Origin: Clostridia bacterium
GTDB lineage: Bacteria > Bacillota > Clostridia > Oscillospirales > Acutalibacteraceae
Length of the DNA: 42,255 bases
NCBI GenBank assembly: GCA_017380615.1
Contig: JAFODQ010000073.1
Span: forward strand, 1 to 42,255
Direction: 5' to 3'
Shown here one piece after another: positions 589-19,254 of this stretch. The notes under the pieces were generated by a model. It was not told where the DNA came from. It did no database searches and saw only the letters and a list, made by a program, of their open reading frames with translations. The first letter of the stretch is position 1; each line of letters starts with the position of its first letter. Made by a program: the position numbers and the translations under genes.

Positions 589-1872
589 TTATTTTCTTAA
601 AATCATTACTGTTGAAATAAATTCTTTGTTTTGTTCATCGTATTCCCAGTTGTAATCGCCATCATAGTTTTTAAGAGCGGATTTTATGCTTTTTATTCCC
701 AAGCCGTGTTGTTTTTTATTAGCCTTACTTGATTTAAGGCTGTTGCCTTGAGTAACGGGTTTGGTATCACAACTGTTAGTAACTACAATAACATCGTAGG
801 TGTTTCTGTGGTCTGTTTGAAGATGAATTGATTTTTCCTCTGATTTTTCGGCTGATTCCAAGGCATTATCAAGGAGATTACCAAGAATTGAAACAAGGTC
901 AAACATCTGAACACCCGAAAGGTTAGATAACCTTACATCATAATCGAAGCTAACACCTTTAATCTCACATTCGGTTATGTATTTATTGATAATAACATCA
1001 AGATTGTGGTTGCCGCTTGAAGCGTGACGGCTATATTTTTTTAAATCAGCGGTCAAGCGTTCTAAATATTCAATAATATTTTCATCATACGTCATATTAC
1101 GTATTGCCTGAAGATGATTTTTCGTATCGTGAGCATAAACCATAAGGTTATTGTTCTGCCGTTCGAGGATTTCAAAGTATTTGTTATCCGTTTCCTGGGC
1201 TTGTTTAATGGCACGGAGTTCAACAAGTTCTGTTTCATTTTGTGATTGCTTTTGTTGAAGAATACAAGTGCCAATTACCAATATTGAAAGTAACATTGTA
1301 GAAATTGCTATTATCAATCTAAGCCTATCAGATGGATTACCGTAATATGAAACAAGACCAAAGATAGTTACTACAATTAATAAAGAAAACGGATAAATTA
1401 AAGATGTTATATAAGCTTTTTCAATGGAACGAAATTTATTAATGATAAAAGATATTATTTTCAAGAAGACAAACAATAATGATTTGCTTAATATAATTAA
1501 AATTATATATGAAGCTGCGTCATTTATAAAATCTCTGGAAGACCCACCTAAAATTATTGCATCAACCTCTAAAACAATAAACTCAGTAACGCTTACAAGA
1601 CACGTGAATAGTATTGAGTAAAAAATCGAAAAAACACTTTTTAGTTTATATAAAAAATGCAAAAACAAAAACTGAAATACCGTTAATACAATGGTGTTAA
1701 CTACAACATTATAATCAAACGCAAGGTTAATACCGCACATAATCATATAACCTACTGTAATCAAAGCAAAATTACGCAGTTTCTTTTTTGTGGGGGCTAT
1801 ACTTTCATAAAACTCAAAGGAAATTAAACCTTCAACAAACTGCAACAACACATTTAAAATCGCAGTATTCAA
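589..1872 (-). CDS. AgrC-like sensor histidine kinase (GHKL family)
   Basis: A membrane sensor kinase of 427 residues. Residues 1-205 contain about six hydrophobic segments, the layout of peptide-sensing HPK10 kinases such as AgrC and ComD. The H-box AHDTKNHLQAI has the phosphorylated histidine near residue 248. An N-box (GNLLDNALES, about 331-340) and a G-box (QHGLGIKSI, about 388-396) form the HATPase_c_5 domain. The start is a TTG (1870-1872) overlapping the regulator's TGA by two bases as TTGA, with AAAGGGGGAG just upstream, so the two genes are translationally coupled. No agrB or agrD gene lies next to it, so the ligand is unknown. It should phosphorylate the regulator encoded at 1869-2570. 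Confidence 0.9.
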   Translation of the reverse strand: MNTAILNVLLQFVEGLISFEFYESIAPTKKKLRNFALITVGYMIMCGINLAFDYNVVVNTIVLTVFQFLFLHFLYKLKSVFSIFYSILFTCLVSVTEFIVLEVDAIILGGSSRDFINDAASYIILIILSKSLLFVFLKIISFIINKFRSIEKAYITSLIYPFSLLIVVTIFGLVSYYGNPSDRLRLIIAISTMLLSILVIGTCILQQKQSQNETELVELRAIKQAQETDNKYFEILERQNNNLMVYAHDTKNHLQAIRNMTYDENIIEYLERLTADLKKYSRHASSGNHNLDVIINKYITECEIKGVSFDYDVRLSNLSGVQMFDLVSILGNLLDNALESAEKSEEKSIHLQTDHRNTYDVIVVTNSCDTKPVTQGNSLKSSKANKKQHGLGIKSIKSALKNYDGDYNWEYDEQNKEFISTVMILRK

Positions 1873-2570
1873 TACAACTCCCCCTTTAAGTAATTAAACC
1901 AATATTTTCTGAAATCAGCCTGTTTTCGTGTGGCAACAGAAATTCTGTCACCATTTACATACACTTCGGAATAGTCGTACTTGGTAACGTGATGAACATT
2001 GATTATAAAGCTGTTGTGAACAATATAAAAATATGGTTGAGTAAGCTTTTTCACCCATTCATCCCAGGAATCTTTAACAACATAATTGCCGTTGACGGTT
2101 ACGATTGTGATTTTCCGATTTTCACGTTTTACATAGCAGATATCGTTAACGGAAATTTTGGTGTGTTCAGAACCCTGCTTTAAATAAATATCAACAAGCA
2201 TGGTGTTCAGAAACTCCATAGCTTTATCAAGTCCGGAATAAAGTCTTTTTATATCAAAGGGCTTATTGAAAAATCTGAATGCTCTCAAATCCATAGCATC
2301 ATCCTGAAATTCGCTATAGTTGGTTACAAAAAATATGATTATATTTTTGTTCCGTTTTTTAAGAACCTCGGCTAATTTAATACCGTTAATCTCATCCATC
2401 TGTATATCTAAAAAAGCAAGGTCAAATATTACATTGCTCTCTATAACAGCACCTGATGTTTCACTCTCAACTATACTGCAATTAACAAGGTGTTCTTCCA
2501 TATATTTATTAACTGCCTCGCTCAATTCAGCTAAAGCAGTTTTGTTATCATCACAAAGCAATATGTTCAT
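1869..2570 (-). CDS. AgrA/ComE-like response regulator (REC-LytTR)
   Basis: A 233-residue cytoplasmic regulator. Residues 1-120 are a receiver domain with acidic pocket residues D7/D8, the phospho-acceptor D55 in FLDIQM, and the lysine of NKPFD near 105. Residues about 135-230 are a LytTR DNA-binding domain (KISVNDICYVKRENRKITI ... FYIVHNSFIINVHHV). It is the first gene of a two-gene operon with the AgrC-like kinase. Paired 9-bp direct repeats lie upstream of its own operon and upstream of the S8 protease gene, so it probably activates both. The ATG start is set by the REC N-terminus; upstream ribosome-site pairing is modest. Confidence 0.92.
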   Translation of the reverse strand: MNILLCDDNKTALAELSEAVNKYMEEHLVNCSIVESETSGAVIESNVIFDLAFLDIQMDEINGIKLAEVLKKRNKNIIIFFVTNYSEFQDDAMDLRAFRFFNKPFDIKRLYSGLDKAMEFLNTMLVDIYLKQGSEHTKISVNDICYVKRENRKITIVTVNGNYVVKDSWDEWVKKLTQPYFYIVHNSFIINVHHVTKYDYSEVYVNGDRISVATRKQADFRKYWFNYLKGELY

Positions 2571-2845: not shown

Positions 2846-3418
2846 ATGTATAATGAAAAATTGTATCGGGAATACGCTAATGAATTTTGGGTTCGGCTGA
2901 ACGAAGTGTTTTTACAAAAGCCAACTGATTGTAACTATCTACCAATTGTTTTTGAAAGGAAGCCAGATGATAAAAAGTACAAATACATCAATGGCTTTAC
3001 TAAAACGCATGTAAACACCAGAACTCAGTTATCTTCATTATTTCCTGTTGTTTTCATCGACGATGAAAGTTGCGATAAACTAAAGGAAACCATTAGGCAC
3101 GAAATCATTCACTATTATTTAGGTTTGCATTACAAACACTACCAAGATGATACGGCTCTCTTTTGGGTTTTGTGTGATTTGTTTGAAGGCGGAGCATATA
3201 TAGAGCTTAGTGAGAGAAATGAGAATATCTTTAAAACAGCAATACCATACATTAAACGCTTGTATAATCACTATGATAAATGTGAAGAAAAATCTTCTGT
3301 AACTATACATTTAGGAGTTATTCTAACGGCGGTTGATGATGCAGAAACCAACCTTGAAAAAAACATAAGTGGGTTCAAAAATATATTTGAGTATTGTTGC
3401 AAAAAGTGTGGATGTTGA
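2846..3418 (+). CDS. Small HEXXH zinc metallopeptidase-like protein (SprT-like)
   Basis: A 190-residue protein of uncertain role. The clear signature is RHEIIHYYLGL near residues 87-97, a HEXXH zinc site preceded by a helix. FEGGAYIEL about 30 residues later may supply further active-site residues, as in SprT-like and related gluzincin proteins. It ends with CCKKCGC, a cysteine cluster that could bind metal. There is no signal peptide, so it should act in the cytoplasm. The ATG at 2846 is used because the nearby ATG at 2842 meets a stop after three codons. It stands alone between the two-component system and the RES cassette and has its own promoter. The substrate cannot be predicted. Confidence 0.65.
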   Translation: MYNEKLYREYANEFWVRLNEVFLQKPTDCNYLPIVFERKPDDKKYKYINGFTKTHVNTRTQLSSLFPVVFIDDESCDKLKETIRHEIIHYYLGLHYKHYQDDTALFWVLCDLFEGGAYIELSERNENIFKTAIPYIKRLYNHYDKCEEKSSVTIHLGVILTAVDDAETNLEKNISGFKNIFEYCCKKCGC

Positions 3419-3435
3419 AAATTACAGAAATACAA

Positions 3436-3474
3436 AAAGAGCTAACAGATTTTTAAGCAATCTGTTAGCTCTTT
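3436..3474 (-). terminator. Terminator hairpin after the RES cassette
   Basis: A 15-bp stem pairs 3436-3450 (core AGAGCTAACAGAT) with 3460-3474. On the minus strand it is followed by a short T run and lies 116 bp past the RES gene stop. It could also serve the metallopeptidase gene from the other side. It closely resembles the hairpin at 6570-6609 on the opposite side of the cassette. Confidence 0.75.
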
Positions 3475-3589
3475 CATCTATAAACAATCAGATTTTTGAA
3501 AAAATGTCACGACAAAACAATACTACTAATAATGATTCTTTTTCTAGAATGTTAGTAATAAAGCTTTTTATGGTTATCATTTCAAATAC

Positions 3590-4699
3590 TTATTTTTGTT
3601 TTGATAACAATTCTTTAGTATAACGAAGCTTCGTTACTTCAAATGTTCGACTGTATGTGCATTTAAAATTTTCGGGGTTAAAAATAGCGAAATTTGAACC
3701 CCGACTATGCATAGCACTCTGGTATTCAATGCCATCAAATACTGTGTTGCCATCCTCATCTGTAATTGACATTACAAAATCACAAATATACTGTGTCGGA
3801 AGATAATCTAACGGGCTATCTCCGCTACGCATTGGCTTGCTCATCTCTTGATTGATTTTCAAGAGATGCTCTCTATTTATAGCCAACGATGTACAATCAA
3901 CATCGACACCAAATGGACTAATTTTATGTATTTGCTTCAAATCAACCACAGTTATCTCTTTGAGTTGTTTAAATGTCCCAACAGAGACATAGTCATACTC
4001 AGCTGCACGAATTTCATGGAAAGTTGTTTCCTTATTATCAGTCAAATATAATCTGCTTATTCCGGCAGAATTTGCACGACCATTTGAAGCGTATTCTTGT
4101 GGTGGAGCGCCCATTTCGCTCGGAGGAAATCCATCTGCATTTTTAGCAACACGACCTCTATAGAATCGTTGTTTGGTTATGGGTATTTTTTTGCTTATAT
4201 CTAAACAATATTTTTTCAGGAGATCTTTATCTATAAGATCTGTATGAAAACGATTTTTATGCTTTATAGACTCTACAAAATCATCCCATTTTTCAGTGCG
4301 TAATATGGAATGAGATTGTAAATACTCCTTATCATATTTTTCTGGAATTCCTACCTTTTTTTCAAAAATAACCGGATAATCTTCCAATATGGTTGGAGAT
4401 AAAGTTTTTAAAATATTGGACACATCAACATCTGAAATGTCAGCAAAAATATCCCACTCATTTCTTACCGCATCTACTATGGTTCTTAATTCCTCTTTAG
4501 GATAATCTGATGGTAAATCATCTTCTGCTGTATATGCAGAAAGTAAATTGTCAAAAATGCCAATCAAAGTCAGGTCTATATCTGTATCGTATATTTTGGC
4601 TTGTTTAGAACCGCATATTGAACAATCGCCTTCAATGCCTCGTTCTTCAATAATTGCTTTTATTTCTAAATTGCGAAAACAATCGCTGCAAAATACCAT
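3590..4699 (-). CDS. RES-domain protein with zinc/HEPN-type N-terminus (putative NAD+-consuming toxin)
   Basis: A 369-residue protein. The N-terminus has two CxxC pairs (C4/C7 and C26/C29), as in the HEPN/RES N-terminal domain family, followed by a helical region. The C-terminal half is a RES domain with its three signature residues: Arg in RFYRGR (R181), Glu in FHEIR (E229) and Ser in YQSAM (S328). Studied RES toxins of toxin-antitoxin systems degrade NAD+ (MbcT by phosphorolysis); that activity here is inferred from family. The ATG overlaps the last base of the upstream sce7725-like stop (TAATG), so the genes are coupled. No Xre/MbcA-type antitoxin is adjacent. The two upstream partners may control it or trigger it. 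Confidence 0.85.
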   Translation of the reverse strand: MVFCSDCFRNLEIKAIIEERGIEGDCSICGSKQAKIYDTDIDLTLIGIFDNLLSAYTAEDDLPSDYPKEELRTIVDAVRNEWDIFADISDVDVSNILKTLSPTILEDYPVIFEKKVGIPEKYDKEYLQSHSILRTEKWDDFVESIKHKNRFHTDLIDKDLLKKYCLDISKKIPITKQRFYRGRVAKNADGFPPSEMGAPPQEYASNGRANSAGISRLYLTDNKETTFHEIRAAEYDYVSVGTFKQLKEITVVDLKQIHKISPFGVDVDCTSLAINREHLLKINQEMSKPMRSGDSPLDYLPTQYICDFVMSITDEDGNTVFDGIEYQSAMHSRGSNFAIFNPENFKCTYSRTFEVTKLRYTKELLSKQK

Positions 4700-5631
4700 T
4701 ATAATTCTCCGTCCAAATAAAGTCCTATCAACTCAAGATGATGCATTAAGGATAATTTTTTGACAACGCCAAGGCCAGGATAAGACTGTTCCTCATAAAT
4801 TTTTTCAAACGTTTTTATACCGATTGTATCAAGACGTTGGGTTTTATTCCATTCCACTAATTGTGTTACTGCTTGATAGAATTTCTTAGCAGGGTCAGTT
4901 ATATCTTCGTTATCTTCTGACACAAAATGGCGGATTCGCAATTCGTGTGCTTCATTAAAATAAACAATATGAATTGCAACAGCGTGCGGTGCAAAACCTG
5001 ATTCTGTGTATTCGCTTCCTATAATTGAATAATCAGAAAAACCTACATAACCATCGTCTTGATAATATAGGTGGTCATCAGAAAAGAATTCATCTGGATC
5101 GTCTAAATAATCTTGATTGCGACTCTTTTTATTGAATTTATCTTCTAATAAAATTCTTCCTTTTCTAATCTTACGGAAAGCAGAAGAATAAGGAACCAGT
5201 GTTTTTACTCCCTCACTACTTTGAAATGTCTCTACATAAAATTTTATGAAATCAGGGTTGGTACACAATGTAATTATATCCGAATCGGAAACACCGTTAT
5301 TACGCCAATTATCAATTCTACTAGGAGTATTTTTATTAATTATATGACCTCTTTTAATTTCTTGGTTTAAAAGAATATCTGATAGTTTTTCTTTATATTG
5401 AGCATTTTTGGGATTTTTTGCATCTGTTTTAAAAGAACCTACTTGTGGATTGCGAATTAAAGCCACTTCTCGGTTTGCTTCTGCAAAAGCTCCAAGTGTA
5501 TTTACAAGTGTAGGTGTTAGTTTAACAGGTTCAATAATGGGAATTATTTTTTCACTTAACACAGACTTGTTTAATAATTCTTTTATTGCTAGAAGTTCAT
5601 TTTGTCTGCCTCTTAATATTGGGTAATACAA
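4699..5631 (-). CDS. sce7725 family protein
   Basis: A 310-residue protein starting MYYPILRGRQNELLAIKEL and IIPIIEPVK, the hallmark N-terminus of the sce7725 family. The opening also resembles the 'beta protein' family (xxPILKxxxxE ... PLIE). I know of no assigned biochemical function. The start is TTG 5629-5631, immediately after the upstream TAA, supported by GAAGGAGTG eight bases before. It is the middle gene of a tightly packed operon. There are no membrane segments. A conserved-looking arginine (ALIRNPQVG, about 78-86) and an acidic stretch near DDPDEFFSDDHLYY may matter. Its constant pairing with sce7726-type nucleases suggests a sensor or partner role, which is inference. Confidence 0.8.
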   Translation of the reverse strand: MYYPILRGRQNELLAIKELLNKSVLSEKIIPIIEPVKLTPTLVNTLGAFAEANREVALIRNPQVGSFKTDAKNPKNAQYKEKLSDILLNQEIKRGHIINKNTPSRIDNWRNNGVSDSDIITLCTNPDFIKFYVETFQSSEGVKTLVPYSSAFRKIRKGRILLEDKFNKKSRNQDYLDDPDEFFSDDHLYYQDDGYVGFSDYSIIGSEYTESGFAPHAVAIHIVYFNEAHELRIRHFVSEDNEDITDPAKKFYQAVTQLVEWNKTQRLDTIGIKTFEKIYEEQSYPGLGVVKKLSLMHHLELIGLYLDGEL

Positions 5632-6492
5632 TTATTTCACTCCTTCGAAAGTTTTATTTAAATATTCATTTAGTGATTTTATTTGAGTTTTATTAAACTT
5701 TGAAAAATACACCAAAAATCTTAATGCATATGGAACGGTGTCAAAATCTACGATGTCAATTTTATTCCTTTTCTTCAATTCTTTTAAACATAATTCATAT
5801 AACTTTTCGATAGGAAGTTTACATGCGATTTTTTTGCACTCACGATAATAATTAACAGGGGTTACACTAGGTAAGCTTTTATTTATCTGTCTTACTATAT
5901 TCTCATATTCTGGTTTATTAAGGATTTTGAAGATTTGTTCTTTATCCAATTGCTCGTCGAATTTTTCAGGTTCTTTCAAATGTTTTATCGTATTTTTTTC
6001 GGTAAGAACATAAATGCCAACAGGCGTGTCTACAAGTTTTTCCATCAACTCTTTTGATTGTGCAACACTAGTAACTACACACACATGGTCAAAAGCTTTA
6101 TAATAATCTGCAATTTGAGACTCTAACCGTTCAAAAGTATCAAGTTCCGTTTTTATTTCATAAACAACAGCTTTACCATTAATCATTATAAAGTCTGCCT
6201 TGGATTTTGCGACAGGAACTTCCGTAAGAGCAGTTGTCGTTTTTAATCTATGTGCACTTATGATTAATTTATTAAGTAAAGTGTTTTTATAAAAATATTC
6301 ATTTCGATAGGAGGTACCTAAATATTGATATATTTCAGATATAACACTTTCATTATTGGTTCCATCATCATAAGAAATTTCATATCGTTTAACGATACTT
6401 GAAAGAATGGAAACATCACTGGGACAATTAATAAAATTTTTCAATGTGTTTTGGGTAAAAACACGTGTCAAAATTGAGTTATTTGTACTCAT
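5632..6492 (-). CDS. sce7726 family protein, PD-(D/E)XK nuclease-like
   Basis: A 286-residue protein matching the sce7726 family: LLNKLIISAHR followed by TEVPVAKSKADFIMINGKA. The segment contains E91, D100, then YEIKTE with E112 and K114, and later R122/Q127. That is the D-x(n)-ExK core of a PD-(D/E)XK nuclease fold. The open frame reaches 6525, but GAAAGGAGG sits eight bases before the ATG at 6490-6492, and the promoter -10 overlaps the upstream ATG, so MSTNN is the start. It is the first gene of the three-gene cassette and ends next to the TTG of the sce7725 gene. Nuclease activity is inferred from motifs. Confidence 0.83.
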   Translation of the reverse strand: MSTNNSILTRVFTQNTLKNFINCPSDVSILSSIVKRYEISYDDGTNNESVISEIYQYLGTSYRNEYFYKNTLLNKLIISAHRLKTTTALTEVPVAKSKADFIMINGKAVVYEIKTELDTFERLESQIADYYKAFDHVCVVTSVAQSKELMEKLVDTPVGIYVLTEKNTIKHLKEPEKFDEQLDKEQIFKILNKPEYENIVRQINKSLPSVTPVNYYRECKKIACKLPIEKLYELCLKELKKRNKIDIVDFDTVPYALRFLVYFSKFNKTQIKSLNEYLNKTFEGVK

Positions 6493-6499
6493 TGGGTTT

Positions 6500-6558
6500 C
6501 CTCCTTTCAAAACACATATATCCATAATTATATTACCACAATTTTATCGTCTTTACAA
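6500..6558 (-). promoter_or_regulatory. Promoter and ribosome site of the sce7726/sce7725/RES operon
   Basis: On the minus strand, -35 TTGTAA (6553-6558) and -10 TAATAT (6530-6535) have a 17-bp spacer; an overlapping TATAAT (6527-6532) would give 20 bp. The ribosome site GAAAGGAGG follows about 20 bases later. No clear operator is seen. Confidence 0.6.
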
Positions 6559-6569
6559 CCCTATTACCT

Positions 6570-6609
6570 AAAAAGAGCTGACAGACTAAAAAATCTGCCA
6601 GCTCTTTTT
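6570..6609 (-). terminator. Terminator after the amidoligase/GGCT genes
   Basis: A 16-bp stem with one mismatch joins AAAAAGAGCTGACAGA (6570-6585) to TCTGCCAGCTCTTTTT (6594-6609). T runs on both sides make it potentially bidirectional. It lies 37 bp beyond the GGCT stop. Its sequence is very similar to the hairpin at 3436-3474. Confidence 0.8.
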
Positions 6610-6645
6610 ATTTATAATTTTCTGTATAGTCTTTTTGTGTGCCAC

Positions 6646-7083
6646 TTATTTCCCAACCGACCGCATAACGCCTTCCTTCAAGTACACTGGGTCGAATTTG
6701 GAGGTTCGGTAGCCTTGCAGGATTGTTGCGTAGTAATATGCACTGGGCTTTCCCAGTGGTCTGCCGGGGTTCATTACATACATCATAACCTGTGTTTTTC
6801 TGCCGTCGATTTTAACTGTTACATTTTCCTTTCTGTAAAGTCGTGGAAAGCCTTCGTAAATATCAAGGCTATCTTCGTCAGCATCGAATATTTCCCAAAT
6901 CATAACCGGTACTCGGTCGTTTTCGGAGGGCTCAACAGTTGCAACTGCATTGCCGTTGTGACCACGGAAGGTGAGCTTGTAGTGTTCCAAGTAGGTGGTT
7001 GCTACCATTCTTGCTGTAGGGCATCTGTAAGCCATTTGTTGTAGGTTCAGGTTTGAACCATAAGCTAAATAAAGTTTTGACAT
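6646..7083 (-). CDS. Gamma-glutamylcyclotransferase-like (AIG2/GGCT) protein
   Basis: A 145-residue cytoplasmic protein. YGSNL at residues 8-12 is the GGCT substrate-binding loop. The catalytic glutamate is E77 in IYEGFPRLYRK. TFRGHNGNAVATVEP fits the rest of the fold, and the length is usual for the family. Known members cleave gamma-glutamyl amine or amino acid bonds with release of 5-oxoproline. It lies 45 bp downstream of an amidoligase gene. Amidoligase/GGCT pairs have been described in Firmicutes and are thought to make and remove an amide bond on an unknown substrate. The substrate here is unknown. Confidence 0.88.
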   Translation of the reverse strand: MSKLYLAYGSNLNLQQMAYRCPTARMVATTYLEHYKLTFRGHNGNAVATVEPSENDRVPVMIWEIFDADEDSLDIYEGFPRLYRKENVTVKIDGRKTQVMMYVMNPGRPLGKPSAYYYATILQGYRTSKFDPVYLKEGVMRSVGK

Positions 7084-7128
7084 AAAAAAGTTCCTTTCGT
7101 AATAAAAATATATTAAGGTAGGTGGTTT

Positions 7129-8034
7129 TTAAGCCACCGTACCATTTCTCCAAGCTGCTGAACCATTAAGGTGTTTGCAAAGGTGCTCTCTGCAGTTTTT
7201 AAATTCATCACCAACCAAGCCGATTCTGTTAAGGTATGTTCTCATTGCAAACTTTTCATTTTCGGTTTGGTTTTTCTTTGTGCTTGCTTTCTTCTGTGTT
7301 AATGCCTGATTGTTAAGTGCTAATGCTAAAACAATGTAACTGCGTATCTTACCTGCGTGTAAGGTGCTGTTGAATCCTCTTAACTCAACTGTGTGGTTTC
7401 CGTGGAAAAAACTGTGTAAGTTTAAGAAATGGTATCTGCTGTCGTGGTAGTGAGTGTCTCTTGATTGATAAAAGCCTGCATACCAAATATTCTCGATTTG
7501 AGAAAAGGTTGCAGGCTTTTTTCTATTCATTGTTTCAACTAATTGTGTATCCATCTTCTTGCACCATCTTGTTCTTGCACTTCCAATTTGAAGGCTCTTG
7601 TAAAGAAGGTCGTTTTTTGATGCGATGATGTTGATGAAGTTTCTGATTGACCTTGGTGTGTGGTCTGCTCCGTTAAGGTGAATGTGAATTCCGCAGCTAC
7701 CTTCGTCCACAAAAGCTCCGCCTTTGCGAAGTTCTCTAATGAGCTCCTGTAGGCTGTCGATGTCTTCTCTGTAGGTTAAAACCGGTGTAACCAATTCGCA
7801 CTTGTAAAGGTCGGATGCATGAACTTTTATTCCGTTTTCCTTCTTAAGAGGTTTAATGCTGCCATCATACATTACTGTCCATTTTCTTCCGTGGTTGTCA
7901 AGAACTACCTTTTTGTCGTAGTAGGTACCCGCTGATGTTACTGTGCTGTTGAAGTGCTTTGCAACTATCTCAGCAGCCTTTGTTCTTGTAATCCCTGTGA
8001 ATTCAACCTCAATACCAATCTTTGCATTTAACAT
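7129..8034 (-). CDS. Amidoligase family protein (Amidoligase_2)
   Basis: A 301-residue enzyme of the glutamine-synthetase-like (COOH-NH2 ligase) fold. Visible motifs are GIEVEFTG (residues 7-14, metal-binding glutamates), YDGSI (56-60), CELVTPVL (79-86, another conserved Glu), GIHIHLNG (115-122, the histidine pair) and VELRGFNSTL (216-225). It should form an amide bond using ATP; the substrate is not known. It is followed by a GGCT-like enzyme that could hydrolyse gamma-glutamyl linkages. The start ATG has AAAGAGGT upstream. Upstream lie two direct repeats that may be an operator. It belongs to the cargo of the mobile element that starts with the XRE gene. Confidence 0.87.
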   Translation of the reverse strand: MLNAKIGIEVEFTGITRTKAAEIVAKHFNSTVTSAGTYYDKKVVLDNHGRKWTVMYDGSIKPLKKENGIKVHASDLYKCELVTPVLTYREDIDSLQELIRELRKGGAFVDEGSCGIHIHLNGADHTPRSIRNFINIIASKNDLLYKSLQIGSARTRWCKKMDTQLVETMNRKKPATFSQIENIWYAGFYQSRDTHYHDSRYHFLNLHSFFHGNHTVELRGFNSTLHAGKIRSYIVLALALNNQALTQKKASTKKNQTENEKFAMRTYLNRIGLVGDEFKNCREHLCKHLNGSAAWRNGTVA

Positions 8035-8244: not shown

Positions 8245-8670
8245 TTATTTCTTTTCAGGCAGAGCTTGGATTTTTACAACAATATTATCTATATCGCAAA
8301 GAGTCTGCTGATCAAGGCAACGGTGCCTTTCTGCTCGTATAAGATTTTCAACTGCGGTTTTGCCATAATCATCAAGGGATAAATAAGAACGAATAGCTTC
8401 TTTAAAAATTGTTTCAACTTCCCAACTACCCAACTGGTCAATTTCCTCTTCTGTTAAGTTAGGTGATGAGTCATCATCAGAATGCCCGAGAATATAATCA
8501 ATGCGTTTATCAAAAATGTCTGAAAGCACGTTTAATGTTTCAAAGTTGGGTTGGCGTTTCCCGGTTTCCCACATAGCAATAGTTCCTTTTGAAACATCTA
8601 AACGTTCTGCCAATTGAACCTGAGTCATATTACTCTTTTTTCTTAATTCTTTTAACCTTTGTGCAAACAT
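8245..8670 (-). CDS. XRE/Cro-CI family repressor of the mobile element
   Basis: A 141-residue regulator. Residues 3-60 form an HTH_3 domain (LKELRKKSNMTQVQLAERL ... TIAMWETGKRQPN). The C-terminal half is an acidic helical region (LTEEEIDQLGSWEVETIF) typical of element-borne repressors. The frame is open upstream to 8724, but GGAGGTGC precedes the ATG at 8668-8670, so that start is chosen; the longer frame would overlap the operator. It is transcribed away from the excisionase/primase genes. The same near-palindrome lies in its own promoter and in theirs, so it probably acts as a CI-like switch controlling the element. Confidence 0.9.
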   Translation of the reverse strand: MFAQRLKELRKKSNMTQVQLAERLDVSKGTIAMWETGKRQPNFETLNVLSDIFDKRIDYILGHSDDDSSPNLTEEEIDQLGSWEVETIFKEAIRSYLSLDDYGKTAVENLIRAERHRCLDQQTLCDIDNIVVKIQALPEKK

Positions 8671-8692
8671 ATTTAGCACCTCCGACAAACGA

Positions 8693-8721
8693 ATAATATC
8701 ACACAAAGTGAGAAAAGTCAA
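8693..8721 (-). promoter_or_regulatory. XRE gene promoter with overlapping operator
   Basis: On the minus strand, TTGACT (8716-8721) and TATTAT (8693-8698) have a 17-bp spacer. The spacer is almost filled by TATCACACAAAGTGAGA (8697-8713). This matches the perfect dyad at 8823-8839 at 14 of 17 positions, consistent with autorepression. Confidence 0.72.
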
Positions 8722-8761
8722 CATAAAGTTATCAAAATAAATAAAATTGTTTAAAATAGTT

Positions 8762-12586: not shown

Positions 12587-13834
12587 ATGGAAAGAATCGT
12601 AACACGTGTCCGTTTTGAAAAACCAATTATTCCAAAGCTAAAACGGGTGGCTGCGTATGCTAGGGTGTCGTCAGGTAAGGATGCAATGCTTCATTCATTA
12701 TCGTCGCAGGTTAGTTACTACAGTAATTTGATTCAAACTCATAGCGGTTGGGAATATGCAGGCGTGTATGCGGACGAAGCTCTAACCGGTACAAAAGACA
12801 ACCGTTATAACTTCCAACGACTTATTAACGATTGTCGTGAAGGCAAAATTGATATGGTAATAACCAAATCAATATCTCGATTTGCGAGGAATACGGTAAC
12901 ACTACTTGAAACCGTGCACGAGTTAAAGAGTTTAGGTATTGATGTGTATTTTGAAGAAGAAAAAATACACTCTATGGAAGCACAGGGTGAGCTGATATTG
13001 ACCTTTCTTGCAGGATATGCTCAAGAGGAAAGCTTGTCTGCAAGTGAAAATCAAAAATGGAGAGTGAAACGTAATTTTGAAAGTGGAATGCCGTGGACAG
13101 GAACTATGTTGGGATATCGTTATGAAGATGGCAGATACACCATTGTTCCGGAAGAGGCTAATATAGTTAATATGATTTTTGAAAGTTACCTTTCGGGGTT
13201 AGGAACTGTAGCAATTGCTAACATGCTTAACAGAAAAGAAGTACCTACTCGCTTTGGTAACGAATGGTGTAAGAATAGCGTTGTAAGAGTTTTGCAGAAT
13301 TATTCTTATACAGGAAACCTGATGCTTCAAAAAACTTACAGAGAGAATCACCTAACAAAGCGCAAACTGCAAAATAATGGTGAACTTCCACAGTATCACG
13401 CAGAAAACACACACGCCCCAATCATTGATATAGGTACATATAACTTGGTACAACTGGAAATGAACAGACGTGCAGAGAAATTCGCAAAGCCACACCCAAA
13501 AAAGAAATACCAATTTACCGGGCTTATTACCTGTGCCAACTGTGGTAAGCATTATCGCAGAAAGGTAACCAAAACAAATGTGGTGTGGATTTGCACAACA
13601 TATAATACCCACGGCAAAAGTGAATGTCCGTCAAAAGCAATACCTGAAAGAACCCTATTAGCACTTACAGAGGAATTGGGCGGTATTGATAAAATAACGG
13701 GCATACAAGCCTATAACGGTAATCTTTTAAGGTTTACCCTTGATAACGGAGAAAGCGTTGAAAAACAGTGGAAGGACCGTTCAAGGAGTGAGAGTTGGAA
13801 AAAGGAATGGAGACAGACAAATGGCAACAGCTAA
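12587..13834 (+). CDS. Serine recombinase 1 (resolvase/invertase family)
   Basis: A 415-residue large-type serine recombinase. The N-terminal catalytic domain has the nucleophile S28 in YARVSSGKD and the arginine-rich segment ITKSISRFARN. It is followed by the Recombinase domain (NIVNMIFESYLSGLGTVAIA ... GNEWCKNSVVRVLQNYSYTG) and a zinc ribbon (CANCGKHY ... CTTYNTHGKSEC). It ends soon after the ribbon and lacks the long coiled coil of its neighbour, so it is shorter than most members. AAAGGAGG precedes the ATG. It overlaps the second recombinase by 14 bp. The pair probably works together, as CcrA/CcrB do, to integrate and excise the element; the division of labour is not known. Confidence 0.93.
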   Translation: MERIVTRVRFEKPIIPKLKRVAAYARVSSGKDAMLHSLSSQVSYYSNLIQTHSGWEYAGVYADEALTGTKDNRYNFQRLINDCREGKIDMVITKSISRFARNTVTLLETVHELKSLGIDVYFEEEKIHSMEAQGELILTFLAGYAQEESLSASENQKWRVKRNFESGMPWTGTMLGYRYEDGRYTIVPEEANIVNMIFESYLSGLGTVAIANMLNRKEVPTRFGNEWCKNSVVRVLQNYSYTGNLMLQKTYRENHLTKRKLQNNGELPQYHAENTHAPIIDIGTYNLVQLEMNRRAEKFAKPHPKKKYQFTGLITCANCGKHYRRKVTKTNVVWICTTYNTHGKSECPSKAIPERTLLALTEELGGIDKITGIQAYNGNLLRFTLDNGESVEKQWKDRSRSESWKKEWRQTNGNS

Positions 13835-15410
13835 AAATGTTACAGTGATACCTGCTACACTCAATTTACATACAGGTACACCCAAAGCATCAAACCAAAA
13901 ACGAAGGGTTGCGGGTTACGCTCGCGTGTCTACCGATAGTGATGAACAATTTACAAGCTATGAAGCACAGGTGGATTACTACACCAATTTCATAAAAAGT
14001 CATCCTGAATGGGAGTTTGTTGAGGTGTATACCGATGAAGGTATTTCAGCACTTAACACCAAAAGGCGTGAAGGCTTTAAAAGAATGATTGCTGATGCTT
14101 TGGAAGGGAAAATAGACCTTATTGTAACAAAATCTGTCAGTCGATTTGCGAGAAATACGGTGGACAGTTTAACAACTGTTCGTGATTTGAAGGATAATGG
14201 TGTTGAGGTTTATTTTCAAAAAGAAGAAATATGGACTATGGATTCTAAAGGTGAACTTCTAATAACAATTATGTCTTCACTTGCACAGGAGGAAAGTCGC
14301 TCCATTTCTGAAAATGTCACTTGGGGACAACGCAAACGATTTGCTGATGGGAAAGTAAGTATGCCATACAAGAATTTTCTTGGTTACAAAAAAGGCGCAG
14401 ATGGTTTACCTGAAATCGTACCAGAAGAAGCGAAGGTTGTCCGCGATATTTACAGAATGTTTATGGAAGGCATGACCACCTGTGCTATTGCAACTTACTT
14501 AACGAAAAATGAAATACCTACACCATCCGGAAAACAGAAATGGCAACGACAGACAGTGGAGAGTATTTTAAGGAATGAAAAATATAAAGGCTCTGCGCTT
14601 TTACAGAAGACCTATACTGTGGATTTCCTGCAGAAAAAGATGAAAGTAAATGAGGGTGAGGTGCCACAGTATTATGTGGAACACAGCCACCCGGCTATCA
14701 TAGTCCCTGAAGAATGGGAGCGAGTGCAGCTAGAGTTGAATCGCAGAAAAGATGATAGCAGACGCACTTTATGTAACAGTCCCTTTGCAGGTAAACTTAT
14801 CTGTGGTGATTGTGGTGAAATTCTAGGTTCTAAGGTATGGCATTCCAACAGTAAATATCGCAGAACTATATGGCAATGTAATGCCAAGTTCAAAGGTGAC
14901 AAGAAATGCGCCACTCCTCATTTGTATGAGGACGATATAAAAAGGTGCTTTGTAACTGCATTGAGTCAATTAATCAAGGACCGTAATGCTTTGCTTGATG
15001 ACGGCAGAATGGTAATGCAGCAACTCAAAGATACAACTTCAATTGATACTGAGTGCGAAGAGCTGCTCGGTGAAATGGAGGTGGTAACAGAGCTCATCAA
15101 AAAATGTGTGAGTGATAACAGCACCCAAGCCCTAGACCAAACAGATTACATCAGTAAATACACCGGACTAGTAGAGCGCTATGAAAAGCTGCAAAGCCGG
15201 TATGATTACCTGAAGAGAAAGAAAGAACGACGCTTACGGCAATTTGACTGCATGAGTTATTTCATTTTCGCTGTTATGGAATTGGATGAGCTCGAAATGG
15301 AATTCAACCCGGCACTGTGGAATACCACTGTTGATCATGTAACTGTGTATGCAGATGAGAGATTGTTGTTTTATTTTAAGAATGGTAGTGAGGTTGGGGT
15401 GGCGCTTTAA
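13821..15410 (+). CDS. Serine recombinase 2 (large serine recombinase)
   Basis: A 529-residue large serine recombinase. The start ATG 13821-13823 (MATAKN) is preferred to the earlier opening at 13740, which lies deep inside recombinase 1. The catalytic serine is S37 in YARVSTDSDE. The usual ITKSVSRFARNT-type motif (here VTKSVSRFARNT) and LAQEESRSISENV follow. The Recombinase domain spans about 190-300, a zinc ribbon CGDCGEIL ... CNAKFKGDKKC about 335-370, and a C-terminal coiled coil about 410-475. It is likely the main integrase. A terminator follows 18 bp after its stop. Confidence 0.94.
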   Translation: MATAKNVTVIPATLNLHTGTPKASNQKRRVAGYARVSTDSDEQFTSYEAQVDYYTNFIKSHPEWEFVEVYTDEGISALNTKRREGFKRMIADALEGKIDLIVTKSVSRFARNTVDSLTTVRDLKDNGVEVYFQKEEIWTMDSKGELLITIMSSLAQEESRSISENVTWGQRKRFADGKVSMPYKNFLGYKKGADGLPEIVPEEAKVVRDIYRMFMEGMTTCAIATYLTKNEIPTPSGKQKWQRQTVESILRNEKYKGSALLQKTYTVDFLQKKMKVNEGEVPQYYVEHSHPAIIVPEEWERVQLELNRRKDDSRRTLCNSPFAGKLICGDCGEILGSKVWHSNSKYRRTIWQCNAKFKGDKKCATPHLYEDDIKRCFVTALSQLIKDRNALLDDGRMVMQQLKDTTSIDTECEELLGEMEVVTELIKKCVSDNSTQALDQTDYISKYTGLVERYEKLQSRYDYLKRKKERRLRQFDCMSYFIFAVMELDELEMEFNPALWNTTVDHVTVYADERLLFYFKNGSEVGVAL

Positions 15411-15514: not shown

Positions 15515-16342
15515 ATGAAAGCTGTAAAACACCCCGGGAAATGCAAGTTGTGTGGTGAACTTAAAGATTTAACACCGGAACATATTCCACCCAAAAGCGC
15601 TTTTAATAATAACAACATAACTGTTTTACCATTTGATGAGGTTTGTAAAACTCTAATGGGTACTGACGGTAGGATGCCTTGGGATATAAATGGCTTAAAA
15701 GGAACAATACAACAAGGCGGGCATAAAAAATATTGCCTCTGCAAGACGTGTAACAATAATACTGGGAATTGGTATATGAGAGCATATACTGACTTTGCCA
15801 AAACAATAAATGTAATAATACAAACAAAGGATTTGTTACCGGGAAATGCATATTCGTTTACAATAAAAGATTTATATCCTCTTAGACTGTTTAAAGCAAT
15901 GATGACTATGATATGTGATTTGAATGATAATTGTCTTGGAGATTCTAATCTTCGTGAATTCTTAATGAACAAGGAAAGCAACAAAATAGATACATCCAAA
16001 TATTCTATATATATGTATTTAGTATCCCCGCAAGCGGTTAGAATGAGTGGTATTTCAGCCCAAGTGCATATTGATGACCCTAAAAATCCTGTTTTGGTTT
16101 CAGAAATGTCAGCATATCCTATTGGGTTTGCTATGTATTTAGATAAGCCAAAAGACTATACGCCTTTTGGACTCAATGTTGATTGCTTTGCAGATGCAGA
16201 TTACAATACAAAGTGTAATGTGCAATTTACTGGTATCCCTTATTTGGATATAAACAGCCAATTTCCAATTGATTTTCGTTCAAAGGATGATATTATAAAA
16301 TGCTCTACCGAAAACGATGAAAATATCACAGCTGATGAATGA
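15515..16342 (+). CDS. HNH endonuclease-like protein
   Basis: A 275-residue protein. The N-terminal 90 residues carry an HNH-type zinc site: CKLCGE (C10/C13), TPEHIPPKSAF (E22/H23) and CLCKTCNNNTGNWY (C76/C79, N80-N82). The EHIPPKS ... CNNNTGxWY pattern is common in uncharacterised HNH proteins of defence islands. The remaining 185 residues are a mixed region with no motif I recognise. The catalytic activity is inferred. It is the first cargo gene after the recombinases and has its own promoter. AAGAGA is a weak ribosome site. It may form a defence locus with the PIN and HEPN-motif genes or stand alone. Confidence 0.75.
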   Translation: MKAVKHPGKCKLCGELKDLTPEHIPPKSAFNNNNITVLPFDEVCKTLMGTDGRMPWDINGLKGTIQQGGHKKYCLCKTCNNNTGNWYMRAYTDFAKTINVIIQTKDLLPGNAYSFTIKDLYPLRLFKAMMTMICDLNDNCLGDSNLREFLMNKESNKIDTSKYSIYMYLVSPQAVRMSGISAQVHIDDPKNPVLVSEMSAYPIGFAMYLDKPKDYTPFGLNVDCFADADYNTKCNVQFTGIPYLDINSQFPIDFRSKDDIIKCSTENDENITADE

Positions 16343-16466: not shown

Positions 16467-16505
16467 TAAAGACTAGAAATATAGAAATTGGGAGAAAAGG
16501 GTTAT

Positions 16506-17660
16506 ATGAAAGAAAACGAAAGAGTTACTTTAGTTTTAGTTGACACATGTGCTTTTAGAGACGTGAATAGTGATTTTCTTGGCATAACAAGGGAATTATT
16601 ACCTTCTTTTTTCTCAACTATTAATGAAAAAGGTATTGTTTTGCTGACTCATCCTATTCTTGATAATGAAATTCGTAAACATATTGAGGATTCGGGGTTG
16701 TATAAAAATTATCAGGCGCTCATTTATCAACTTGTAAAAACCAATGATACTTTAAAATATTTTGAACTCAATAACGAAGAACTGTTTTCAAATATCAAAG
16801 AACTAGACATTAAGGAAAGATTGTTTGAAACTTATAAAGAATATTATAGAAATGCTATTCATCTTGAGTATGGTGACCCTGCTGATGTCTTTTCTCTTTA
16901 TTTTAATGGGGAGCCTCCTTTTGCGCCATCAGGTAATAAGAAGAATGAATTCCCTGATGCCTTTGTTTTTAATGGTGCCAAAAAGTATCTTGAAAATCAC
17001 CCCAATGATATTCTGTTGGTCGTATCAAAAGACAAGGATTGGATATCTGCCTTTAATGGAATTGAAAATACTGTTATTTCTGCTTCTGTATCTGAGGCTT
17101 TAACGAAAATCAGCAGCATAGATAGTATATTAAGTTCAGAAATGCTAGACGAAATTTTTCGTGGTGCATATGACGAAATACTTTCGGATGCTAAATTTCA
17201 TGTAGAGAGTGAATGTTTTGAATTAGAAGATTATGAAACATTTAACGAACTTGAAATAGTGTCAGTGGAAGTTGATAGTGTTAGTGACAGTTTCACTCCT
17301 CTTAAAATAACTCGAGACAGTATATTAATTAGTACAGATATTACGGTTAAAGTTTCTGGTTATGCAGAAGTGTTTGATGAGGATAATTCGATTTGGGATA
17401 GCGTTGACCAGGAATATATCTATATGACTTATGCTGATGTGTATTTTACAGATGCTGAAGTGAATGTTGAGTGTGAAATCCTTATCTCATTTGATTTCGA
17501 TAGTCCTGAAGATACTGCTGAGGTAGTGAGACTCAAATTGCTTAACCAAGGCAATATTTTTATTAATTGCAGAAATGCAACTGTGACACAAATCGATGAT
17601 GATGAAATAGCTTTACGAGTATTGCGAGAAGATAAGGGTTATCCTAGAAGGAATAAATAA
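16506..17660 (+). CDS. PIN-domain (DUF4935-like) protein, putative ribonuclease
   Basis: A 384-residue protein. The first 200 residues read as a PIN nuclease: VDTCAFRDVN (D13), HPILDNEIRKH (E55), EFPDAFV (E148, D151) and VVSKDKDW (D176/D178), matching the acidic quartet of PIN domains and the DUF4935 layout. The C-terminal 180 residues are acidic and beta-rich (EIVSVEVDSVSDSF ... YADVYFTDAEVNVE), with no family I recognise; they could bind a partner or ligand. The start ATG 16506 is preferred over the TTG at 16488; GGGAG and AAAAGGG lie upstream. It is 49 bp before a gene with a HEPN motif, so the two probably form a transcription unit. Confidence 0.82.
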   Translation: MKENERVTLVLVDTCAFRDVNSDFLGITRELLPSFFSTINEKGIVLLTHPILDNEIRKHIEDSGLYKNYQALIYQLVKTNDTLKYFELNNEELFSNIKELDIKERLFETYKEYYRNAIHLEYGDPADVFSLYFNGEPPFAPSGNKKNEFPDAFVFNGAKKYLENHPNDILLVVSKDKDWISAFNGIENTVISASVSEALTKISSIDSILSSEMLDEIFRGAYDEILSDAKFHVESECFELEDYETFNELEIVSVEVDSVSDSFTPLKITRDSILISTDITVKVSGYAEVFDEDNSIWDSVDQEYIYMTYADVYFTDAEVNVECEILISFDFDSPEDTAEVVRLKLLNQGNIFINCRNATVTQIDDDEIALRVLREDKGYPRRNK

Positions 17661-17709: not shown

Positions 17710-18864
17710 ATGGATGTTTCTACTGTGGTGAATCAAATTAAGCATCTCCTAAAAAATATTTCAGTCGTTTCAGAAAACACACAGCGAAACGATGAACATC
17801 TTGTAGAAATTCAGTATGCAGATAATCCACTAGATCCTAATTTATTAGCATATTGTTTCGATAATATTTTAGGCTTTGATGTTCGATATAGGATTTTTGA
17901 AAAAGTCAATTACATTATTCAGTTTGATTATAAAGGTACTTTTGCTGCCGTCGGGCATTTTAAAATGAGCTATACGCTTTCTATTGATAGGCAGTACAAA
18001 GACGAAATAATATCGACATTTCAACAAGTTCTCCCTTTGCTTGAACAATTATTTATGCTGATAGGTGAACAAGCATTAACTAATAATGAGTTTTCAATGA
18101 AAAACGAGGCTGCAGAATACTTTGGAAAACTTTCATTTTATGAAAAGAAAATCGAGTCTCTTGAGAAACGGGAAAAAATCATTAAAGAAAAATGTCGAAA
18201 TAAATATGACGTTACGAAATACTCCAATGGGTGCACTTGTTTTACTCCTAAAGGTCAAGAATATTTACATTCGCTTAGTAGTGAAATAACTTATGATATT
18301 GAGGCGTATATAGATACTTTCTTTTCTGCTCTTGAGCATGTGTTAACACTATTGTATCCGTTCGTTAACTCCTCTAATTTAGTTGATTCCTATTACAAAA
18401 ATTATATAAGAAACACAAGGTGGTCGTGGGACGCAAAAATTCGAGATGTTTGTGGTAATTCAATGCCCACAGGAATATGTGCGGAATTGCGTAGAATCAA
18501 AGAAGTTTATCGAAACCATAATGCACATGGCGGTTTTTCACGCGAGATGATGGCTTATGTTCAAATTCCTAAGTTCGGTCGTTTCCCTATATATGTTGGC
18601 AAAGAATATTTGAAAGGTTTCATCAACTGTTCTTATGATGATATTTCTTATGACATGTATCTTGATGCTAAAGCGGTATTCAATCAGTTTTGGAAAACTT
18701 TAGATTCGGAATTTGAAATACCGATGTTGTTTATTCGCAGTGGTCTTGCAATTCCAATTGATACGTCAATATATACTGATGGGATTAAAACAAAGGAACA
18801 AGCTGAACGGTTTATTGATAAAACATGGTTTGATATTGATAACCAATCTAATATGGATTGGTGA
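17710..18864 (+). CDS. Protein with HEPN ribonuclease-like RNxxxH motif
   Basis: A 384-residue protein not matched to a named family. In the C-terminal half, KEVYRNHNAHGG carries R268-N269-x3-H273, the Rx4-6H active-site motif of HEPN ribonucleases. It lies at the end of a helix after a long helical region (ITYDIEAYIDTFFSALEHVLTLLYPF), as expected for HEPN. Residues 145-165 are a basic coiled-coil-like stretch (KIESLEKREKIIKEKCRNK). The N-terminal 130 residues are mixed alpha/beta and may be a sensor. Ribosome site GGAGAGG precedes the ATG. It is the last cargo gene and directly follows the PIN gene. RNase activity is inferred from the motif. Confidence 0.6.
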   Translation: MDVSTVVNQIKHLLKNISVVSENTQRNDEHLVEIQYADNPLDPNLLAYCFDNILGFDVRYRIFEKVNYIIQFDYKGTFAAVGHFKMSYTLSIDRQYKDEIISTFQQVLPLLEQLFMLIGEQALTNNEFSMKNEAAEYFGKLSFYEKKIESLEKREKIIKEKCRNKYDVTKYSNGCTCFTPKGQEYLHSLSSEITYDIEAYIDTFFSALEHVLTLLYPFVNSSNLVDSYYKNYIRNTRWSWDAKIRDVCGNSMPTGICAELRRIKEVYRNHNAHGGFSREMMAYVQIPKFGRFPIYVGKEYLKGFINCSYDDISYDMYLDAKAVFNQFWKTLDSEFEIPMLFIRSGLAIPIDTSIYTDGIKTKEQAERFIDKTWFDIDNQSNMDW

Positions 18865-19169: not shown

Positions 19170-19254
19170 TGGTGCGGGTGACAGGACTTGAACCTGCACA
19201 GATCACTCCGCTAGATCCTAAGTCTAGTGCGTCTGCCAATTCCGCCACACCCGC
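19170..19254 (-). tRNA. tRNA-Leu (anticodon UAG)
   Basis: The 85-base minus-strand gene begins GCGGGTGTGGCGGAATTGGC and ends CACCCGC-A-CCA with an encoded CCA. The acceptor stem GCGGGTG/CACCCGC is perfect. The anticodon arm CTAGA-CTTAGGA-TCTAG gives anticodon TAG. A long variable arm and TTCAAGT T-loop fit leucine. The promoter lies 33-61 bp upstream. Confidence 0.95.

What the first reader, a model, noticed from the sequence alone, without database searches (positions are those of the whole stretch)
3590..6492. Three-gene sce7726 / sce7725 / RES cassette as a possible defence system
The sequence shows a tightly coupled operon: a PD-(D/E)XK-like sce7726 protein (D100, E112, K114), an sce7725 protein of unknown function, and a RES-domain protein with all three signature residues (R181, E229, S328) and a zinc-type N-terminus. 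Junctions are stop-start adjacent or overlapping by one base. Known RES toxins consume NAD+. Combining a nuclease-like protein, an unknown partner and an NAD+-depleting effector on a mobile element fits an abortive-infection design: sense, cut or regulate, then kill. I know of no characterised system with this gene order.
Basis: partly seen in the sequence, partly recalled or inferred. Interest (0 to 1): 0.78.

Follow-up and report, generated by a model that had tools for sequence, protein, structure and literature searches.

The report
Likely NAD-depleting phage-defence gene cassette
Three genes travel together through very different bacteria and look like a known anti-virus gene set from a phage satellite whose killer part has been swapped for a protein of a family that destroys the cell's NAD; I found no report of anyone testing whether it stops phages.

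Summary
In detail: a minus-strand operon encodes sce7726, sce7725 and a RES protein with a zinc-finger-like N-terminus. The order is not a local accident. In the 80 best genome loci, sce7726 lies upstream of sce7725 in 80 and a RES match directly downstream in 79, across about seven phyla by record title.

sce7726 is a homologue of P4 Cll (PADLOC 'cll', 1.9e-19). sce7725 is probably a very distant homologue of P4 Beta (profile match over 308 columns, probability 88.5; two control families 0.1). P4 gop-beta-cll is a demonstrated anti-phage system whose Gop is toxic without Beta (PMC9122126, passages). Here Gop is absent and RES takes its place. Of 18 E. coli loci, 9 were opened and all 9 have defence genes nearby.

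Best reading: a new variant of gop-beta-cll, an abortive-infection module in which Cll and Beta restrain a RES NAD+ phosphorylase until infection. Operon, co-conservation and Cll homology are shown; Beta homology is probable; phage protection, NAD+ loss, restraint and trigger are inferred.

The parts
5632..6492 (-). sce7726 / Cll homologue, PD-(D/E)XK-like (E65, D100, E112, K114, D118, R122, Q126 invariant)
   Evidence: NCBIfam NF033832 3.9e-55; PADLOC cll 1.9e-19; P4 Cll by hhalign Prob 98.0, E 2e-13; 75-row alignment
4699..5631 (-). sce7725, probable distant Beta homologue; invariant polar residues E34, N61, D200, H221, K250, K291, H298
   Evidence: NCBIfam NF033831 3.3e-101; Pfam Beta_protein weak, 0.0046, below cut-off; 76-row profile against 14 Beta proteins, global Prob 88.5 over 308 columns, controls 0.1; invariants from the 76 rows
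3590..4699 (-). RES-domain protein, predicted NAD+ phosphorylase effector, with C4-C7 / C26-C29 zinc-finger-like N-terminus and HEPN_RES_NTD1
   Evidence: Pfam RES 3.9e-12 and HEPN_RES_NTD1 3.8e-7; R181, R183, R208, N210, Y218, E229, S328, N336 invariant in 66 rows
3435..3475 (-). Terminator-like hairpin downstream of RES (perfect 16-bp stem)
6569..6610 (.). Hairpin upstream of the operon, similar in sequence to the downstream one
   Evidence: inverted repeat I13; not in the terminator scan list

Best explanation
The cassette is a toxin-antitoxin-like anti-phage module related to P4 gop-beta-cll, with the Gop toxin replaced by a RES enzyme. Proposed mechanism: the two upstream genes make the regulators Cll (sce7726) and Beta (sce7725), which bind the RES protein, probably through its zinc-finger/HEPN_RES_NTD1 part, and hold it inactive. 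Phage infection is sensed through Cll, whose intact PD-(D/E)XK-type residues suggest that it meets DNA, and/or through Beta. [quoted passage not shown] NAD+ collapses and the cell stops before the phage finishes. Shown: operon, co-conservation, invariant active-site residues, Cll homology. Probable: Beta homology. Inferred: binding, restraint, trigger, NAD+ loss and phage protection.
For: 1) Order kept: of 80 genome loci, 80 have sce7726 upstream and 79 a RES match directly downstream (a few genes broken or cut); three-gene distances correlate, Mantel r 0.90-0.92 over 59 loci, 0 of 1000 permutations as high. 2) sce7726 = Cll. 3) sce7725 probably = Beta; the F-[SG]-D-Y and HH blocks align. 4) Cll pairs with Beta elsewhere: PF14350 Beta occurs in 4 of 199 genomes, and in all 4 lies convergent to a Cll gene, as in P4. 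5) P4 gop-beta-cll protects against lambda and P1 and Gop is toxic without Beta (PMC9122126); the Beta-related PD-lambda-2C is needed for defence (PMC9519451). [quoted passage not shown] 7) E. coli: 18 of 5426 genomes carry it; 9 of the 18 were opened and all 9 have defence genes nearby: Kiwa, TIR/caspase set, SIR2, BREX, AbiE, type I RM, McrBC. 8) It moves as a unit: DNA identity to L018-L020 ends at the cassette edges, and none of 21 genus mates has a DNA match beyond one 38-base one.
Against: No experiment. The Beta link is weak by single sequence (Prob 4.8), 53.3 with 7 rows over the N-terminus only, 65.1 in local mode with 14 rows, and the PADLOC 'beta' model does not hit. Some loci have a broken sce7725 (L049) or sce7726 (L055, L082) beside an intact RES, which a strict antitoxin role does not predict unless these are assembly errors. 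RES proteins with the same N-terminus occur without Cll or Beta (L146-L148). PD-lambda-2C is not needed to neutralise its toxin. A RES protein with the R-E-S residues can be non-toxic (GndR, PMC12457610). A small PADLOC neighbour test in other genomes, mostly Bacillota, was inconclusive. The E. coli loci largely share one island backbone and are not independent.
Confidence: 0.6

Rival explanations
1. A toxin-antitoxin addiction module: RES is the toxin, Cll and Beta neutralise it, and the selected benefit is stability of plasmids, ICEs and islands, not phage defence.
For: It sits on plasmids, beside conjugative-element genes, and on serine- or tyrosine-recombinase elements; [quoted passage not shown]
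Against: The related gop-beta-cll and PD-lambda-2 are demonstrated phage-defence systems; in E. coli it is chromosomal in 18 of 18 and among defence cargo in the 9 opened.
Confidence: 0.2
2. A DNA-damage or stress response unit: Cll recognises damaged or foreign DNA and RES induces dormancy, in the manner suggested by the RES-Xre relative GndRX.
For: Cll keeps D100, E112 and K114 in the 75 rows aligned; GndRX acts in genotoxic stress (PMC12457610 passages).
Against: Sporadic and horizontally acquired (9 of 398 genomes; none of 21 genus mates), unlike a core stress gene.
Confidence: 0.1
3. Cll is the main effector, a phage-DNA nuclease controlled by Beta, and RES is a back-up killer or an ADP-ribosyltransferase that modifies a target without emptying the NAD+ pool.
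For: Invariant D100, E112, K114 in 75 rows; Cll-Beta pairs occur without a toxin that I recognised beside them in Bacillota genomes (no search for Gop was run there), and sce7726-sce7725 pairs without RES in viral contigs.
Against: A RES match is kept in 79 of 80 genome loci and its active site is invariant in the 66 rows aligned.
Confidence: 0.1

Closest known systems
gop-beta-cll of satellite phage P4 (PMC9122126; P4 record X51522)
   Same: Cll homologue and probable Beta homologue beside a toxin gene; carried on mobile elements; one E. coli cassette lies next to genes annotated like a P4-type satellite (psu, Delta, primase; H31).
   Different: No Gop, which in P4 is a 133-aa protein with two hydrophobic stretches by eye; RES instead. 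P4 cll is convergent to beta, whereas here all three genes are co-directional with the toxin last. sce7725 is not hit by the PADLOC beta model.
PD-lambda-2 (PMC9519451; L203 is a full match)
   Same: Contains a Beta-related third protein that is required for defence; L203 matches models A, B and C.
   Different: HigB-like and HigA-peptidase proteins instead of RES and Cll; the weak PD-Lambda-2_C match of the window protein covers only residues 2-40.
RES-Xre toxin-antitoxin modules (NatRT and relatives, PMC11535050)
   Same: RES family by Pfam; the conserved arginine, glutamate and serine are kept.
   Different: No Xre/MbcA/ParS antitoxin in the cassette; an added zinc-finger-like and HEPN_RES_NTD1 N-terminus.

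Membership tests
gop-beta-cll | Cll homologue | tested here: met
   PADLOC cll 1.9e-19; hhalign to P4 Cll Prob 98.0, E 2e-13
gop-beta-cll | Beta homologue | tested here: inconclusive
   Pfam Beta_protein 0.0046 below cut-off; PADLOC beta no hit; profile-profile global Prob 88.5 over 308 columns, local 65.1, two controls 0.1
gop-beta-cll | Gop toxin | tested here: not met
   No third gene other than RES in the operon; RES profile against P4 Gop Prob 0.4
gop-beta-cll | beta and cll convergent | tested here: not met
   All three genes on one strand against the P4 record
gop-beta-cll | toxin relieved by Beta; phage protection | not testable with these tools
   needs experiment
PD-lambda-2 | A, B and C components | tested here: not met
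   No A or B match among the three proteins; C only 0.0068 over residues 2-40
RES domain toxins | RES family match with arginine, glutamate and serine kept | tested here: met
   Pfam RES 3.9e-12; R181, E229, S328 invariant in 66 rows; triad as named in PMC12457610. PMC9503650 describes the RES active site otherwise (S and E replaced by Y and N); Y218 and N336 are invariant too
RES domain toxins | NAD+ phosphorylase activity | not testable with these tools
   needs assay
RES-Xre TA module | adjacent Xre/MbcA/ParS-type antitoxin | tested here: not met
   No HTH gene in the operon; the Xre protein at 8245-8724 shows helix-turn-helix hits but no MbcA/ParS-type toxin-binding domain and lies beyond two other genes
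PD-(D/E)XK nuclease superfamily | D...(D/E)xK residues | tested here: met
   D100, E112, K114 invariant in 75 rows; the superfamily label itself is recalled, no Pfam nuclease model hit
PD-(D/E)XK nuclease superfamily | fold | not testable with these tools
   structure prediction switched off; no credible PDB sequence match (one at 0.85)

The most novel reading that the evidence does not exclude
Cll-Beta is a general phage-sensing and restraint platform onto which different killing effectors have been plugged: a small membrane-protein-like toxin (Gop, P4), HigB/HigA-like proteins (PD-lambda-2, Beta only), and here a RES NAD+ phosphorylase, which would be the first RES effector shown in phage defence. 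Prophages that carry the Cll-Beta pair without RES (7 distinct viral contigs seen) would carry it as a decoy antitoxin against hosts that have the full cassette.
Probability: 0.3. Interest if true: 0.85.

Novelty: new variant of a known kind. Interest (0 to 1): 0.68.

Why it matters
The NatT paper (2024) states that no RES-domain TA system had been implicated in bacterial immunity, and that known NAD-targeting immune systems use TIR and SIR2 enzymes (PMC11535050, passages). A 2022 survey had already suggested that phage-borne RES-HTH pairs might inhibit superinfecting phages (PMC9503650, passages), so the idea is older than this finding but seems untested. If this cassette defends, it adds a third enzyme class to NAD-depletion immunity. 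PADLOC models see only the Cll part clearly, so its rules would presumably not call the system. The close E. coli copies make it testable at once in laboratory strains.

Tried and rejected
PDB sequence searches with the three profiles gave no related structure (none; one at 0.85; four at 0.091 to 1.3, taken as chance).

Defence-island test outside E. coli: 114 neighbour proteins (115 picked, one very long one dropped by me) from 22 of 31 eligible loci, picked at random, against 109 from 16 arbitrary 8-kb regions of eight other genomes (17 regions asked, one did not exist). 73 against 48 PADLOC models matched at 1e-20, 25 of each listed. The models overlap, the control held restriction and Druantia-like hits, and counts per protein were not given, so I count this as inconclusive.

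Single-sequence searches were too weak: viral scan with the window protein, 0 relatives; P4 Beta against the small sce7725 profile, Prob 4.8. Only larger profiles gave the Beta link.

Flanking hairpins as insertion ends: similar hairpins lie on both sides, but the motif was not found in L018-L020, so they are read as terminators.

RES standing alone: looked at three such genes (L146-L148); no common partner was recognised. L149 and L150 were fetched and not analysed.

Literature: I saw search listings only, except passages of five papers (PMC9122126, PMC11535050, PMC9503650, PMC12457610, PMC9519451). No listed title or abstract start describes sce7725/sce7726 or a RES effector shown in phage defence. 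Several listings were capped, the five papers that name sce7725 or sce7726 were not opened, and the library holds only open-licence papers.
Full report
What is there. The window lies at C101:1-42255 of a 1.97-Mb draft genome in 119 contigs. The finding is a three-gene operon on the minus strand: sce7726 (5632-6492), sce7725 (4699-5631) and RES (3590-4699). Ribosome-binding sites (AAAGGAGG before the ATG at 6492, AAGGAG before the TTG at 5631) and the one-base TAATG overlap are read directly from the sequence. Hairpins lie downstream (3435-3475) and upstream (6569-6610). The surroundings look like a mobile element: two large serine recombinases at 12587-15410, a DUF3987 protein and an Xre-type repressor, and a tRNA-Leu at 19170. 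Its ends were not mapped.

Is it more than a local accident? With profiles of the three families, all 80 have sce7726 directly upstream and 79 have a RES match directly downstream. The exception, L035, carries a macro-domain gene in that place. Some genes are broken or cut: sce7726 split in L055 and L082, sce7725 in L049, RES truncated or split in L034, L051 and L096, and RES running off the stretch in others. Titles include Bacillota, Spirochaetales, Arthrobacter, Synergistaceae, Melainabacteria/Gastranaerophilales and a Sphingobacteriaceae assembly; many are metagenome bins, so single odd placements may be contamination. Plasmid records add Moraxella, Pseudorhizobium, Shinella and Rhizobium (5 of 11 plasmid records opened: 4 with all three genes, the Enterococcus one without RES). 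Of 3 records with a match in the phage collection, 1 was opened, a Salmonella contig with all three genes. Evolutionary distances of the three proteins correlate over 59 loci (r 0.90-0.92; 0.73-0.82 over 52 loci without the distant rows), so the genes have largely travelled together.

Frequency. In 398 genomes drawn from the phylum: sce7725 in 9, sce7726 in 24, of which 23 over the family cut-off, the RES profile in 14. All 9 sce7725 genomes also have sce7726, and 8 have a strong RES match. A DNA search of 40 genomes (own and 39 relatives) found nothing in the 21 other members of the genus except one 38-base match in G399. DNA identity of 73-75% to L018-L020 covers the cassette (3592-6567) and stops there; only two weak protein matches lie outside. 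It is a mobile cassette.

What the proteins are. sce7726 hits the PADLOC 'cll' model at 1.9e-19, and its profile matches P4 Cll with Prob 98.0. D100, E112 and K114 are invariant in 75 rows, with E65, D118, R122 and Q126. sce7725 hits Pfam Beta_protein only at 0.0046 over residues 2-37. Against a 14-row alignment of Beta proteins its 76-row profile aligns over 308 columns with Prob 88.5 (global) or over 306 with 65.1 (local); the other two cassette families used as controls gave 0.1. Three blocks line up: the N-terminal Y-P-LR-E-AL-P motif, F-[SG]-D-Y, and the C-terminal HH. I take homology as probable, not proven. The RES protein keeps R181, R183, R208, N210, Y218, E229, S328 and N336 in the 66 rows aligned. 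NatT's active-site residues R23, R82, Y93, S184 and N193 (PMC11535050, passages) are of the same kinds, with similar spacing within the pairs R82-Y93 and S184-N193; I made no alignment to NatT. Two papers describe the RES active site differently: an arginine-glutamate-serine triad (PMC12457610), or S and E replaced by Y and N (PMC9503650).

Link to a known defence system. Rousset et al. 2022 (PMC9122126; passages read; authors' names here and below recalled) report that P4 gop-beta-cII protects against lambda and P1 and that Gop was shown to be toxic without Beta. Vassallo et al. 2022 (PMC9519451; passages read) report that the third protein of PD-lambda-2 is related to a P4 antitoxin, is not needed to neutralise the toxin, and is needed for defence. 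An independent sign that Cll and Beta belong together: of 15 phylum genomes with sce7726 but no sce7725, 14 were fetched and 8 have a Beta gene convergent to the Cll gene, as in P4. One of the 8 (L181) has a split Beta that I recognised by eye only. The 15th, G309, had a match below the cut-off. In the 199-genome Beta search all 4 hits are of this kind. So Cll is found with Beta (convergent) or with sce7725 plus RES (co-directional); in 6 of the 14 I recognised neither.

Exchangeable effector. P4 has Gop, a short protein with two hydrophobic stretches by eye; L203 is a full PD-lambda-2; the cassette here has RES. Two single cases have other genes where RES should be: AriA/AriB-like (PARIS) genes about 80 bases downstream in L109 (L110 shows the same ORFs), and a macro-domain gene followed by a gene that looks like an ADP-ribosylglycohydrolase (my reading, not scanned) in L035. 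They are leads, not proof.

RES-less pairs in viral contigs. Of 32 viral-contig loci, 20 have a RES match (ten with the same match values, so probably copies of one), and 12 do not: 8 with an intact pair (7 distinct, since L109 and L110 are the same), one at a contig end (L121) and three with a broken sce7725. On a quick tree RES presence needs 4 changes, at least 3 forced by well-supported branches; 7 of the 8 RES-less rows are viral contigs. Toxin loss with regulators kept fits a decoy antitoxin, but 6 of these 7 belong to one distant clade.

E. coli context. The Salmonella cassette finds 18 of 5426 E. coli genomes, all chromosomal, 96.9-97.8% identical. I opened 9 of 18. All 9 have genes annotated as, or typical of, defence in the stretch: Kiwa in five (H16, H18, H19, H23, H24), a TIR-caspase set in five (H15, H23, H24, H30, H31), SIR2 (H32), BREX and AbiE (H19), type I RM genes (H18, H23, H31, and a fragment in H32), McrBC (H18), a reverse-transcriptase gene (H15). 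Eight of the 9 show the same kind of relaxase gene, with tRNA-Leu visible in one and fim genes nearby in three, so they are not independent. H31 lies next to P4-like satellite genes.

How it most likely works. Regulators are translated first and the toxin last, coupled by a one-base overlap. Beta, helped by Cll, holds RES. Infection, perhaps seen by Cll as phage DNA ends or by Beta as a phage product, frees RES. RES then removes NAD+ as shown for NatT (PMC11535050). Every step after the homology is inference. Evidence that speaks against a simple antitoxin role: intact RES beside a broken partner (L049, L055, L082), RES proteins with the same N-terminus elsewhere without Cll or Beta (L146-L148), and the RES relative GndR, reported to lack detectable toxicity (PMC12457610, passages).

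Novelty. It cannot be filed as gop-beta-cll, because Gop and the convergent order are absent. It probably works like it. I call it a new variant of a known kind. The statement that no RES system had been tied to immunity is quoted from PMC11535050 (2024); PMC9503650 (2022) had suggested such a role for phage-borne RES pairs. The listings (10, 15 and 12 papers shown) contain no title or abstract start that reports one, within an open-licence library.

Noticed in passing
window 2846-3418 (+): SprT-like protein (weak, Pfam 0.012) with an HEIIH sequence just downstream of the cassette, pointing towards it.
   Followed up: no
window 6646-8034 (-): A gamma-glutamylcyclotransferase-like and an amidoligase-like gene in a row directly upstream of the cassette.
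   Followed up: no
window 12587-15410 (+): Two large serine recombinases with overlapping ORFs, followed by a protein without a Pfam hit (15515-16342), a PIN_12 protein (16488-17660) and another without a hit (17710-18864), up to a tRNA-Leu at 19170.
   Followed up: no
window 589-2570 (-): GHKL histidine kinase and LytTR response regulator pair of the Agr type.
   Followed up: no
window 3435-3475 and 6569-6610: Two similar hairpins flank the cassette; the motif was not found in the three closest relatives.
   Followed up: partly
L109:9009-11322: AriA/AriB-like (PARIS) genes directly behind a sce7726-sce7725 pair that lacks RES.
   Followed up: partly
L035:8941-10912: Macro-domain protein overlapping the end of sce7725, then an ADP-ribosylglycohydrolase-like gene (by eye), where RES should be.
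   Followed up: partly
L185:3970-5629, L190:4592-5876: Convergent Cll and Beta genes whose 3' ends overlap, without a recognised toxin; in L190 a small HicA-like protein (by eye) lies just upstream of Beta.
   Followed up: partly
L208:19064-25874: P4-like satellite genes (psu, Delta, primase) next to the E. coli cassette and a TIR-caspase set.
   Followed up: no
L146, L147, L148: RES proteins with the same zinc-finger-like N-terminus standing apart from Cll and Beta; L146 has a small nuclease-like gene (by eye) nearby.
   Followed up: partly
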